Assembly: GCA_035653615.1 (NCBI GenBank)
Contig: DASRBN010000009.1
Location: forward strand, 1-64,000
DNA length: 64,000 bases
Source of the DNA: Ktedonobacteraceae bacterium
Lineage (GTDB): Bacteria; Chloroflexota; Ktedonobacteria; Ktedonobacterales; Ktedonobacteraceae
Direction of reading: 5' to 3'
Every line of letters begins with the position of its first letter. The first letter of the stretch is position 1. The notes below the pieces were generated by a model. That model saw only the letters and a program-made list of their open reading frames with translations, was not told the origin of the DNA and did no database searches. Positions 58,921 to 64,000 of the stretch are shown here, one piece after another. The position numbers and the translations under genes are program-made.

Positions 58921-59793
58921 TTATCCCTCTTCCTTCAGCGCCTGCCGCATGTATTCTTTTAGCGCCGGAGCGATATCGGGGCGCTTGAGGGCGTAGGCAA
59001 TCGAGGTGGTAAGCAGTCCGAGGGGATTGCCGGTATCGTAGCGCAGGCCGGTGAAGCGCAGGCCATAGCAATGGCCCGTCCTGGCCTGCATCTCTATAGC
59101 ATCGGTGACCTGAATCTCGCCGCCCGCGCCAGGAGGAGTTTTTTCCAGCAGCGCAAAGATATCGGGCGTCAGAATGTAACGGCCCGCGACGCCAAGATTG
59201 GAGGGCGCCTCTTCGGGCCTGGGTTTTTCGACCAGGTGCGTGACCTTGACGACGTTATCGCCCAGGTCCTCAACGGCTGCTATGCCATAAGAAGATACCT
59301 GTTCAGGCGGTGAAATAAATAGCGAGAGTACAGAACCGCCATAGCGTTCGTGAATCTTCATCATGTCGGGCAGAATGGGAGTTTCTGGCGCGACCAGTTC
59401 ATCTCCCAGCATGACGATAAATGGTTCGTCGCCCACCAGCTCTTTGGCGCGCAGGACGGCATGGCCCAATCCAAGGGGTTCGAGTTGCCTCACCGCGGCA
59501 TAGGTAGCCATCGTCTGCACGTGACGCAGCGCTTCCAACTCCTTGCGTTTCCCCTTGCGTTCGAGGGCTGCTTCCAGTTCGGGAAACGCATCGAAATGGT
59601 CTTCGATGCTGCGCTTGCTGCGGCTGGTCACGAAAATAATCTCCTCGACCCCAGCTGCGACGGCTTCTTCCACGATATATTGCAACGTTGGTTTATCAAC
59701 GAGTGGCAGCAACTCTTTCGGCACGACTTTGCTGGCCGGCAACACCCTGGTGCCAAGCCCGGCGACGGGCAGCACCGCCTTACGAATACGCAT
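58921..59793 (-). CDS. galU: UTP--glucose-1-phosphate uridylyltransferase
   Basis: A 290-residue nucleotidyltransferase. AVLPVAGLGTRVLPASKVVPKELLPLVDKP is the activator-binding start, with FVTSRSKRSIEDHFD, VMLGDELV (metal site), VEKPRPEEAPS and GLRYDTGNPLG all in place. It makes UDP-glucose from UTP and glucose-1-phosphate, which feeds cell-wall glycans and the glycosyltransferases at 12-16 kb. Length is as expected. GAGGTGG lies before the ATG. The CRISPR leader lies directly upstream on the other strand. Confidence 0.96.
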   Translation of the reverse strand: MRIRKAVLPVAGLGTRVLPASKVVPKELLPLVDKPTLQYIVEEAVAAGVEEIIFVTSRSKRSIEDHFDAFPELEAALERKGKRKELEALRHVQTMATYAAVRQLEPLGLGHAVLRAKELVGDEPFIVMLGDELVAPETPILPDMMKIHERYGGSVLSLFISPPEQVSSYGIAAVEDLGDNVVKVTHLVEKPRPEEAPSNLGVAGRYILTPDIFALLEKTPPGAGGEIQVTDAIEMQARTGHCYGLRFTGLRYDTGNPLGLLTTSIAYALKRPDIAPALKEYMRQALKEEG

Positions 59794-59878: not shown

Positions 59879-60140
59879 ACAGCTATTGTAGGAGATTGCG
59901 AGGTGCAGGTCAAATCAGGGACCTCTCCCAGCACTTTTTTCGCCGGAGTTGAAATTCCCTAATTGCGAGGGAAGGAAATGTATCTCATTCATATAAGCTC
60001 AGCCGCGAGAGTCGTAGTGACGGATTCTCCACGCTCGATGCCTCGCATCACTTCCCAGGCGGGTTTAAGGCAAAACGCCCCAAAAATGATCGCTTTTTTG
60101 GTCGCTTCAGTGGCCCAAAAAACGCGTGCCTCGCAAACGC

Positions 60141-60169
60141 TTGCATCAAACGGCTTCCTATGCTATACT
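60141..60169 (+). promoter_or_regulatory. CRISPR array promoter
   Basis: TTGCAT (60141-60146), 17-base spacer, TATACT (60164-60169), with TATGC before the -10 (extended -10). The start site would fall at about 60176, only a few bases before repeat 1 (60182). The direction agrees with the array. Confidence 0.65.
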
Positions 60170-60181
60170 ACGGGGGTAGCA

Positions 60182-63100
60182 GGCTAAATAGCCTGGGACG
60201 CCCGTTGGGGATTGAAACCGTTCTTAATGCAGACGCGCCAATTAAACATTTTACGGCTAAATAGCCTGGGACGCCCGTTGGGGATTGAAACACTAAAAAC
60301 TACATCGAAAAAATGCCAGCATACTATGGCTAAATAGCCTGGGACGCCCGTTGGGGATTGAAACTAAAGAATGTAGCAGGGTTCTCACTCTGTATTGTAA
60401 TCGGCTAAATAGCCTGGGACGCCCGTTGGGGATTGAAACTAGGCGTAGCCAATTCCCCCCTCCTTGTTAATACGTAGGGCTAAATAGCCTGGGACGCCCG
60501 TTGGGGATTGAAACTCATACTTTCTTAGAACAGCTTTTTATGTAAGCCTTGGCTAAATAGCCTGGGACGCCCGTTGGGGATTGAAACGACGCGCTTTCAT
60601 GATGCCCATAACAGGGTAAGCATCGGCTAAATAGCCTGGGACGCCCGTTGGGGATTGAAACATAGTTACTTATCAAATGAATTTAGTAAATGGAGGTTGG
60701 CTAAATAGCCTGGGACGCCCGTTGGGGATTGAAACTGCCCTTAGCTTGCCCTACAGCGCCGCTAAGCCCGGGGCTAAATAGCCTGGGACGCCCGTTGGGG
60801 ATTGAAACAATCTCTACGGCTGCCAGCAGCAGCGTATCGGTCATCGGCTAAATAGCCTGGGACGCCCGTTGGGGATTGAAACTGCACGTCTTCTTCCACA
60901 TCGCCCTCCATCCATCCATCCGGCTAAATAGCCTGGGACGCCCGTTGGGGATTGAAACTATCGTGCTGCACGCCCTGTGGGAGCGCAAGGACGAAGGCTA
61001 AATAGCCTGGGACGCCCGTTGGGGATTGAAACGCCGGTCAAAACACCAGCAGGCGCGGTCAACACCAATGGGCTAAATAGCCTGGGACGCCCGTTGGGGA
61101 TTGAAACGAGCAAGATAGCGACCTATCGCACGTTCCATCACGAGGGCTAAATAGCCTGGGACGCCCGTTGGGGATTGAAACATACCCCTTGGAGTTCAGA
61201 TCATTGGCCAGTTGCTGGGGCTAAATAGCCTGGGACGCCCGTTGGGGATTGAAACGCCGCGAGGGCCGAGGTACCAAAGTTGACCCAATTTTGGCTAAAT
61301 AGCCTGGGACGCCCGTTGGGGATTGAAACTGTCCCCTCGAGCAGGGCTCCGGCGAAGCTGGCCCCGGCTAAATAGCCTGGGACGCCCGTTGGGGATTGAA
61401 ACGCGCGTCCACGGCACGGGCGGCATGAGGGCGAAACTCGGCTAAATAGCCTGGGACGCCCGTTGGGGATTGAAACGATGCCGCTGTAGCGACAGATCAG
61501 GCCGGCTGCATCACGGCTAAATAGCCTGGGACGCCCGTTGGGGATTGAAACTCCTTTTCATCTTCATCCAATGCAATCGACTTGTATCGGCTAAATAGCC
61601 TGGGACGCCCGTTGGGGATTGAAACCTATGAAAGGAAGTGCTGTTCTTCCAATGAAGAACCGGCTAAATAGCCTGGGACGCCCGTTGGGGATTGAAACTG
61701 CACATCAAATCCTGCCTCAAACAGAGTTTTCATATAGGCTAAATAGCCTGGGACGCCCGTTGGGGATTGAAACTCATTGTTCTTTCCTTTCCGGGACCTT
61801 GTCCCTGGGGGCTAAATAGCCTGGGACGCCCGTTGGGGATTGAAACGATACCGGAACCTCTACGAAGCAATTAACCGATGGCATGGCTAAATAGCCTGGG
61901 ACGCCCGTTGGGGATTGAAACACTCGAAGACGGTGAGTCCCTGAGATTGTGCGTAGGGGGCTAAATAGCCTGGGACGCCCGTTGGGGATTGAAACGGCAA
62001 GACATACCCGCGACCCCTGCCAGAGGAACTTCAGGCTAAATAGCCTGGGACGCCCGTTGGGGATTGAAACTGCACCCAGCCGTCAGCGACAAGCTGGTCT
62101 ACATTCTGGCTAAATAGCCTGGGACGCCCGTTGGGGATTGAAACTTTCTTGATCCATGTGAAAGCCCACTTGCCGTTGCCGGCTAAATAGCCTGGGACGC
62201 CCGTTGGGGATTGAAACTAACGCCTATTCTCAAATGTGGGTTGTTCGTCCCTATGGGGCTAAATAGCCTGGGACGCCCGTTGGGGATTGAAACGCAACAG
62301 CCCAATTGGAGCCGCTTGACGCCGGACTCCGGCTAAATAGCCTGGGACGCCCGTTGGGGATTGAAACTCAGCACGCCCAGTGGGAACGCTACCCCGACGA
62401 AATCGGCTAAATAGCCTGGGACGCCCGTTGGGGATTGAAACCATACGGACACGGTGTACACACAAGTCCAAGTGGACTGGCTAAATAGCCTGGGACGCCC
62501 GTTGGGGATTGAAACCTCTTTGCGCAACTCGGCAATCATGCGCTCGTAGTCGGCTAAATAGCCTGGGACGCCCGTTGGGGATTGAAACCAACACCTCTGA
62601 GTCCTCTGTTCGCAGATGGATTCATGGCTAAATAGCCTGGGACGCCCGTTGGGGATTGAAACAAAATTGAGCGAGCCGGACAGATCGCCGTGCGCTTGGC
62701 TAAATAGCCTGGGACGCCCGTTGGGGATTGAAACCTTGAGTTTGAACTCGAGGACCCCATTATTCCAATCCGGCTAAATAGCCTGGGACGCCCGTTGGGG
62801 ATTGAAACCCCTCGTTGGATGCGACCGCAATCGTGCCAGTGCCGGCTAAATAGCCTGGGACGCCCGTTGGGGATTGAAACTACATCGCCTCGGTCGGCAT
62901 GGTCTCTGTTGCCAGTGGCTAAATAGCCTGGGACGCCCGTTGGGGATTGAAACGGTCAGAAAAATCGACTTGCTCAATCAGCATGGTCGTGGGCTAAATA
63001 GCCTGGGACGCCCGTTGGGGATTGAAACCGTGATGAAGCTGGTTTGTAGGCGCGCCAGGGCAGGCGCGGGCTAAATAGCCTGGGACGCCCGTTGGGGATT

Positions 63101-63989
63101 GAAACAATCACAAGTCGATTGGCCATACCCTGCGTGCCGCCGGCTAAATAGCCTGGGACGCCCGTTGGGGATTGAAACCTGGCCATACGGTGAGTCGGCA
63201 GCCGGGCTCTCCTGGTAGGCTAAATAGCCTGGGACGCCCGTTGGGGATTGAAACGCCAGGAGAACCTGTGGCTGCCCGCCGGCGCGCGGGGGCTAAATAG
63301 CCTGGGACGCCCGTTGGGGATTGAAACGAGCAAGGAAAATCACTATCGATGAGTTTATGCATGGGGCTAAATAGCCTGGGACGCCCGTTGGGGATTGAAA
63401 CTTGGAACAATCGCACCATAGGTTAAGGAAACGTCCCGGCTAAATAGCCTGGGACGCCCGTTGGGGATTGAAACTTAGCAATCGGGGACTCCGGTATCAG
63501 TCAACTAAACCGGCTAAATAGCCTGGGACGCCCGTTGGGGATTGAAACCGCTTATATCGCCAATTCGCAGCGCTGTTTTCACAAAGGCTAAATAGCCTGG
63601 GACGCCCGTTGGGGATTGAAACTGGATTAATTTCTTTTCCAGACGTGGCATAGGAACTTTGGCTAAATAGCCTGGGACGCCCGTTGGGGATTGAAACCAC
63701 CACACAGCCGACCACGCCCGGCATGGCGCTGAGGCTAAATAGCCTGGGACGCCCGTTGGGGATTGAAACAAAGCTGCACCATCAACAATGGAGTGACCCG
63801 GAAAGCGGCTAAATAGCCTGGGACGCCCGTTGGGGATTGAAACAAATTGAAGTAGGAGCAACCGACCATCTATTTTAAGGGCTAAATAGCCTGGGACGCC
63901 CGTTGGGGATTGAAACAGATTTTGACCCCTCTATCCTTGCCGGTCAGGTAGGGGCTAAATAGCCTGGGACGCCCGTTGGGGATTGAAAC
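60182..63989 (+). CRISPR. CRISPR array, 52 repeats in view, open at the right edge
   Basis: A 37-bp repeat beginning GGCTAAATAGCC and ending GGGGATTGAAAC is present 52 times at 60182, 60255, 60328 and so on to 63953, with no mismatch noticed by eye. Spacers are 35-40 nt (mostly 36-38) and all look different. The last 8 bases, ATTGAAAC, are the classic crRNA 5-prime tag of Cas6-processed type I and III systems, so the array reads on the plus strand with its leader to the left. The array continues past 64000. No cas gene is in the window; the type cannot be fixed. The repeat can fold in two ways: GGCTA/TAGCC at its start, or GGG/CCC and CCC/GGG further in. Confidence 0.97.
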
Positions 63990-64000
63990 TTCGCCCTACT

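What the first reader, a model, noticed from the sequence alone, without database searches (positions are those of the whole stretch)
60182..63989. Very large, apparently uniform CRISPR array with no cas gene in the window
There are at least 52 repeats and 51 complete spacers, all repeats look identical to the eye, and the array goes past the window edge. Long arrays with no visible repeat decay at either side usually mean recent, active spacer uptake. The partner cas genes must lie beyond 64000 or at another locus, or they are missing. The repeat starts with a near-perfect palindrome (GGCTAAATAGCC), unusual next to the usual ATTGAAAC tail, and offers alternative hairpins that may affect Cas6 choice.
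Basis: partly seen in the sequence, partly recalled or inferred. Interest (0 to 1): 0.75.

Follow-up and report, generated by a model that had tools for sequence, protein, structure and literature searches.

The report
CRISPR array invaded by array-targeting transposon
The long CRISPR array is an ordinary type I-D immune memory whose cas genes sit elsewhere in the genome, but just past the window it is cut by a jumping gene that, in this bacterium and three related genera, sits exactly 9 bases after a CRISPR repeat, which suggests a transposon that homes into CRISPR arrays.

Summary
The window holds 52 identical 37-nt repeats and 51 unique spacers (60182-63989). The contig continues to 72 repeats and 71 spacers (to 65472). 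The array is not cas-less in any interesting sense. The genome has a complete type I-D operon plus a second cas1/cas4 and a III-D module on other contigs, and four long arrays with sister repeats and homologous leaders.

The unexpected part lies 1.5 kb beyond the window. Nine bases into spacer 72 the contig ends in a 140-nt transposon end with inverted repeat CACTACAGTTGCACTT. That inverted repeat occurs exactly six times in the genome, always at a contig end inside a type I-D array, always in one orientation. Intact elements with the same inverted repeat in relatives are IS701-family transposons carrying an extra helix-turn-helix protein. Three relatives from other genera carry one subfamily of that protein, and all three copies sit exactly 9 nt after a CRISPR or CRISPR-like repeat. 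The other 16 copies, from other subfamilies, are not in arrays. Most likely this is an IS701-like lineage that targets CRISPR repeats. That the extra protein is the target selector is inferred. The element's interior is not assembled in this genome.

The parts
59992..60181 (+). CRISPR leader, homologous to the leaders of three other arrays in the genome (two of them next to cas genes)
   Evidence: MAFFT alignment, about 190 nt highly conserved up to the first repeat
60141..60169 (+). Sigma-70-like promoter TTGCAT-17-TATACT at the leader end, inferred start of pre-crRNA transcription
   Evidence: Read from sequence; both hexamers invariant in the four leaders; transcription not tested
60182..64000 (+). 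CRISPR array: 52 identical 37-nt repeats and 51 unique spacers to 63989, then the start of spacer 52. Beyond the window (contig C9, same numbering) it runs to 65472 (72 repeats in all); 65473-65481 is the first 9 nt of spacer 72; 65482-65621 is the passenger-side end of the IS701-like transposon, where the contig stops
   Evidence: Exact search; extension and transposon end
58921..59793 (-). Neighbouring nucleotidyltransferase gene (GalU-like, NTP_transferase), not part of the system
   Evidence: Pfam PF00483, 5e-25

Best explanation
The array is one of four long type I-D arrays of this genome, filled by Cas1/Cas2/Cas4 and processed by Cas6 encoded on other contigs. Each of the four has been entered by the same IS701-family transposon. 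The element carries a transposase and a second gene whose product has an N-terminal helix-turn-helix. The transposition machinery recognises the 3' part of a CRISPR repeat and inserts at one fixed place, with the passenger-side end 9 nt after the repeat; given the family's 5-bp target duplication this is spacer nt 5-9. Orientation is always the same, so the spacers beyond the element are cut off from the leader. SHOWN: position, orientation, restriction to arrays in this genome, recurrence in three other genera, a single clade of passengers at CRISPR repeats. INFERRED: that this genome's unassembled interior codes for the same two proteins; that targeting acts through the repeat; that the passenger rather than the transposase reads the repeat; that trailer-proximal position reflects selection or later array growth.
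For: cas genes: complete I-D set cas6, csc1, csc2, cas10d, cas3', cas2, cas1d, cas4 on C24; homologous leaders. Transposon: all six exact copies of the inverted repeat in 6.59 Mb are inside arrays, at contig ends; arrays are about 0.25% of the genome. Distance from repeat to passenger-side end is 9 nt in 5 of 5 junctions: own C9 and C4, G016, G010, G018, next to different repeat sequences in the four genera; the transposase-side end leaves 32-36 nt to the next repeat in 5 of 5. The relatives' copies were found by passenger homology, not by looking in arrays. CRISPR-sited passengers form a 100/100-supported group; 3 of 3 of that group are at repeats, 0 of 16 of the others. The own element end matches that group best (64-75% over 24-25 aa). 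Transposases of intact relatives are IS701 (NF033540, 8e-120). Five copies in G007 share one palindromic type of target and one orientation, so the wider family is target-selective too.
Against: The interior of the element is missing from this assembly, so transposase and passenger of the own copy are inferred from the ends. No CRISPR copy shows a matching 5-bp duplication between its two flanks; in G016 the two flanks carry different repeat variants, which fits recombination between copies but weakens simple insertion. The G018 repeat is a lone copy in that genome. All cases come from one bacterial family. Nothing shows DNA binding by the passenger.
Confidence: 0.8

Rival explanations
1. Ordinary, unselective IS that happens to survive in arrays because insertions there are harmless (safe-haven effect), as in the many transposon-broken CRISPRs already catalogued.
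For: Transposon-split arrays are common (59 curated cases, PMC4852346); all own insertions have 10 or fewer repeats on the trailer side, where damage is least.
Against: A safe haven does not explain the exact 9-nt offset and single orientation in all five passenger-side junctions, nor the clustering of array-sited copies in one passenger clade.
Confidence: 0.08
2. Assembly artefact: a repeated sequence glued to array ends by the metagenome assembler.
For: All six own junctions are at contig ends, each with 140-141 nt of shared sequence, as expected of a k-mer graph breaking at a repeat.
Against: Breaking at a repeat is what a true multi-copy element gives. The same arrangement with the same 9-nt offset is internal to Mb-size contigs in G016 and G018.
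Confidence: 0.05
3. Integration by the CRISPR adaptation machinery (Cas1-Cas2), the element being taken up like a giant spacer, or a casposon.
For: It sits next to a CRISPR repeat, where Cas1-Cas2 acts.
Against: The ends are 9 and 32-36 nt inside spacers, not at repeat borders; relatives of the element code for an IS701 DDE transposase and make 5-bp duplications elsewhere.
Confidence: 0.02
4. Array targeting is real, but the transposase alone (or a DNA hairpin formed by the repeat) gives the specificity, and the passenger does something else, such as regulation.
For: Transposase and passenger travel together, so the data do not separate them; G007 targets are hairpins with insertion in the loop; an unrelated IS family (ISAjo2/IS1202) reaches pdif sites with a transposase only (PMC10132070).
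Against: The passenger is a predicted DNA-binding protein whose CRISPR-sited members form their own clade.
Confidence: 0.4

Closest known systems
Type I-D CRISPR-Cas arrays
   Same: 37-nt repeats ending ATTGAAAC, 35-40-nt spacers, leader with promoter, I-D operon with cas10d/csc3, csc2, csc1, cas3', cas6, cas1, cas2, cas4 in the genome
   Different: Four separate arrays with repeat variants; this one is not next to cas genes; each is broken by the same transposon
IS701-family insertion sequences (NF033540)
   Same: Same inverted repeat CACTACAGTTGCACTT as an intact IS701-type element in G016; relatives have the IS701 transposase
   Different: Carries a second gene with a helix-turn-helix protein; fixed target beside CRISPR repeats; 5-bp duplication in the intact relatives measured here
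ISAjo2 / IS1202 family that hunts pdif sites (PMC10132070)
   Same: IS found in one orientation at a fixed short distance (5 bp there, 9 nt here) from a recurring short DNA element; 5-bp duplication
   Different: Other transposase family, other target (XerC/dif site), no passenger gene
Transposon-split CRISPRs (PMC4852346) and IS insertions in cas genes (PMC10359306)
   Same: Mobile elements interrupting CRISPR loci
   Different: Described there as incidental insertions, some inside the repeat itself; no element with fixed offset and orientation beside repeats was described in the passages read

Membership tests
Type I-D CRISPR array | Array of identical repeats and unique spacers of regular size | tested here: met
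   52 of 52 identical in the window, 72 of 72 on the contig, 71 unique spacers
Type I-D CRISPR array | Type I-D effector and adaptation genes in the genome | tested here: met
   Csc1, Csc2, Cas10d/Csc3, Cas3' and Cas1d all above NCBIfam cut-offs on C24; Cas6 present but below cut-off
Type I-D CRISPR array | This array is served by that machinery | tested here: inconclusive
   Repeats differ by 2 nt from the operon-adjacent array, leaders homologous; expression and interference not testable here
IS701 family | IS701-type DDE transposase inside the own element | tested here: inconclusive
   Interior not in the assembly; intact relatives with the same inverted repeat have it (L088 400 bits)
IS701 family | Terminal inverted repeats | tested here: met
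   16-nt perfect inverted repeat at both own ends, same 16 nt in G016 C1
IS701 family | Short target duplication at intact insertions | tested here: inconclusive
   No match between any pair of own flanks (true partner ends unknown) nor in G016 L139, where the two flanks come from different repeat variants; 12 of 14 non-CRISPR relatives show 5 bp
Site-specific IS (as ISAjo2/pdif) | Same orientation and fixed distance to the target in independent copies | tested here: met
   9 nt in 5 of 5 passenger-side junctions in four genera
Casposon | Cas1 homologue inside the element | tested here: not met
   CRISPR-sited relative L139 codes for an IS701-like transposase and a HTH passenger; no Cas1 among its identified ORFs. 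Own interior unseen

The most novel reading that the evidence does not exclude
A transposon lineage that homes into CRISPR arrays by a dedicated repeat-reading accessory protein, placing itself 9 nt into a spacer. The offset leaves host sequence in the crRNA seed, so chimeric crRNAs made from the broken array would not target other copies of the transposon. The lineage uses the immune memory as its landing pad and trims the oldest memories.
Probability: 0.45. Interest if true: 0.78.

Novelty: new variant of a known kind. Interest (0 to 1): 0.62.

Why it matters
Mobile elements are usually seen as targets of CRISPR arrays, or as accidental disruptors of them. An element that uses the CRISPR repeat itself as its address would have a landing site present in tens to hundreds of copies in any CRISPR-bearing host, and would erode immune memory in a directed way. 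It would also be a compact natural system (one transposase, one small DNA-binding protein) for insertion at a defined distance from a short motif. The comparison across subfamilies with different targets makes the question of which protein picks the target directly testable.

Tried and rejected
DNA search of the own left end in 29 family genomes found no close copy. Phylum-wide pattern search with ATTGAAAC found only the own genome; it missed G016 because the bordering repeat there reads CTTGAAAC. Plasmid and viral-contig searches with the passenger found nothing. Leader-side spacers (27) had no match in the phage collection. PDB and Pfam profile searches gave only weak helix-turn-helix hits for the passenger. 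A first tree put the G018 passenger wrongly because of an off-by-one reading frame on my side; corrected. Structure prediction was not requested, because the passengers come from loci outside the sources that tool lists. Considered and rejected: relic array (uniform repeats, intact leader, intact cas genes); Cas1-driven uptake of the element; spread of one insertion between arrays by recombination (the 9-nt flanks differ).

Full report
WHAT IS IN THE WINDOW. The array is real and as described: 52 identical 37-nt repeats at 60182-63989 with 51 unique spacers of 35-40 nt. The window is positions 1-64000 of contig C9 of a 6.59-Mb, 44-contig genome. The array continues to 65472, giving 72 identical repeats and 71 spacers. 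The repeat 3' end (CCC-GTT-GGG hairpin, then ATTGAAAC) is the usual Cas6 arrangement. The 5' palindrome GGCTAAATAGCC folds as a second small hairpin that is kept in all four repeat types of the genome. The leader, about 59992-60181, ends in a good sigma-70-like promoter (TTGCAT-17-TATACT) and is homologous to the leaders of three other arrays.

CAS GENES. They are elsewhere in the genome. Contig C24 carries cas6, csc1, csc2, cas10d/csc3, cas3', a possible regulator, cas2, cas1d and cas4, next to an array of 22 repeats differing by two bases from the window repeat. Contig C44 carries a second cas1d and cas4 with a neighbouring reverse transcriptase, another 39-repeat array, and further along a III-D module. 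The simple reading is in-trans service of several arrays by one or two I-D adaptation modules. Nothing in this is unusual.

HOW THE ARRAY ENDS. Nine bases into spacer 72 the contig turns into non-CRISPR sequence and stops 140 nt later. The first 16 of these, CACTACAGTTGCACTT, occur exactly six times in the genome, all six at contig ends and all six inside arrays: C4, C9, C11, C27, C28 and C44. Two are one end of the element (C4, C9; identical 140 nt). Four are the other end (C11, C27, C28, C44; identical 140-141 nt). Repeat types pair the ends by array: C9 with C28 (type a), C4 with C11 (type d), C27 with the type-c array of C44, and the far end of C44 with the type-b array of C24. This pairing is inferred from repeat sequence, not from joined contigs. 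The partner contigs on the far side hold 3 to 10 repeats and then degenerate terminal repeats, so each of the four arrays is broken near its old end. Arrays are about 0.25% of the genome; four independent random insertions all falling in them would have a probability near 4e-11.

WHAT THE ELEMENT IS. Its interior is missing from this assembly, as expected for a multi-copy element in a short-read assembly. The same 16-nt inverted repeat bounds an intact 2403-bp element in relative G016 (L088:5203-7605), which codes for an IS701-family transposase (NF033540, 8e-120) and a second protein. The own end contains the last 21 codons of an ORF, TQELTSAVLEQVAAALEAQLN, that match the C-terminus of such second proteins. 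I call this protein the passenger. It has an N-terminal helix-turn-helix (HTH_17, 4e-4, below Pfam's cut-off), a probable coiled-coil middle and a conserved C-terminal domain, and no family name.

RELATIVES. Passenger homologues were sought in 47 genomes of the order without regard to CRISPR. One subfamily, 59-67% identical among themselves, has exactly three members, in three different genera. All three are at a CRISPR or CRISPR-like repeat. G016 (L139) has arrays on both sides. G010 (L140) has eight repeats on one side. G018 (L141) is a decayed element beside a single repeat-like sequence found nowhere else in that genome. In all three, and in the own C9 and C4, the passenger-side end is exactly 9 nt after the repeat's 3' end. 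For G010 this assumes the repeat strand ending in GAAAG is the crRNA sense; the terminal degenerate repeat there leaves some doubt. The transposase-side end lies 34, 34, 36, 34 (own) and 32 nt (G016) before the next repeat. The four hosts' repeats differ in sequence but share a hairpin followed by an 8-nt tag ending TGAAAC or TGAAAG. An independent pattern scan allowing 1-30 nt between TTGAAAC and the element end gave four hits with 9 nt, all of them these elements, and only scattered hits at other spacings. The CRISPR-sited passengers form one group with 100/100 support. The other 16 copies are not in arrays. Of the non-CRISPR copies measured, 12 of 14 carry a clear 5-bp duplication, and five of them in G007 share one type of hairpin target and one orientation. 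A sample of 400 genomes of the phylum showed no homologue outside this family.

MECHANISM. With a 5-bp duplication the insertion covers spacer positions 5-9, so the machinery must measure from the repeat. I favour recognition of the repeat 3' half by the passenger, by analogy with target-selector proteins, at about 0.5; the transposase alone is the main alternative. No CRISPR copy has matching duplications. In G016 the two flanks carry different repeat variants, so recombination between copies in different arrays is the likely reason; the own pairs may have lost intervening array in the same way, or short array pieces between copies may be unbinned. An inference worth testing: array transcription runs into the passenger-side end, so the last crRNA would carry a seed of host spacer (9 nt) followed by transposon sequence, which would not target other copies.

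COMPARISON WITH THE LITERATURE. Transposon-split CRISPRs are known (PMC4852346), as are IS insertions in cas genes (PMC10359306). Site-hunting IS at a fixed distance from a recurring motif are known for pdif sites (PMC10132070). Eight searches of the open-access library found no report of an IS with fixed offset beside CRISPR repeats, nor of this passenger family; subscription papers and ISfinder were not searched, so prior description is not excluded.

VERDICT. The array itself is ordinary. The transposon that ends it is probably a new, CRISPR-directed variant of the IS701 family.

Noticed in passing
C44:1-28186 (L038, L040): Second defence island: 39-repeat array, cas1d, cas4, a group-II-type reverse transcriptase beside them, E1/JAB and E2-like proteins, a Csx14-like protein with a LuxR-type HTH, a CARF-PDDEXK nuclease, Cas6 and a III-D effector set (Cas10, Cas5, multi-Cas7).
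   Followed up: partly
C9 spacer 38 (about 62954-62991) and C44 array spacer 37: Two different spacers in two arrays overlap by 17 nt on the same strand, so both arrays sampled the same invader locus independently.
   Followed up: partly
L124-L128 (G007): Five copies of a sister IS701+passenger element inserted in the same orientation in the loop of a hairpin flanked by C runs; one copy has different hairpin arms but the same architecture, hinting at structure-based targeting.
   Followed up: partly
L134-L138 (G014): Sister elements sit in copies of a dispersed repeat around TTCACGCTGATTTCC, in both orientations, with 5-bp duplications.
   Followed up: no
L088:5203-7605 (G016 C1): Intact IS701+passenger copy inside a pentapeptide-repeat gene, itself 15-nt tandem-repeat DNA, duplication AAACG.
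   Followed up: partly
L139:6990-7714 (G016 C2): The array-sited element carries extra DNA at its transposase-side end, with an internal repeat of its terminal sequence and an apparent cargo ORF.
   Followed up: no
L090:5573-5699 (G027): 127-bp element with the same inverted repeats and a 6-bp flanking match CTCCCG, probably a MITE mobilised by these IS701 elements.
   Followed up: no
C24:2007-4430 (L032): 807-aa protein (DUF262-like by eye; PADLOC Orf5/HEC-06/SspE-like) lies between the I-D array leader and cas6.
   Followed up: no
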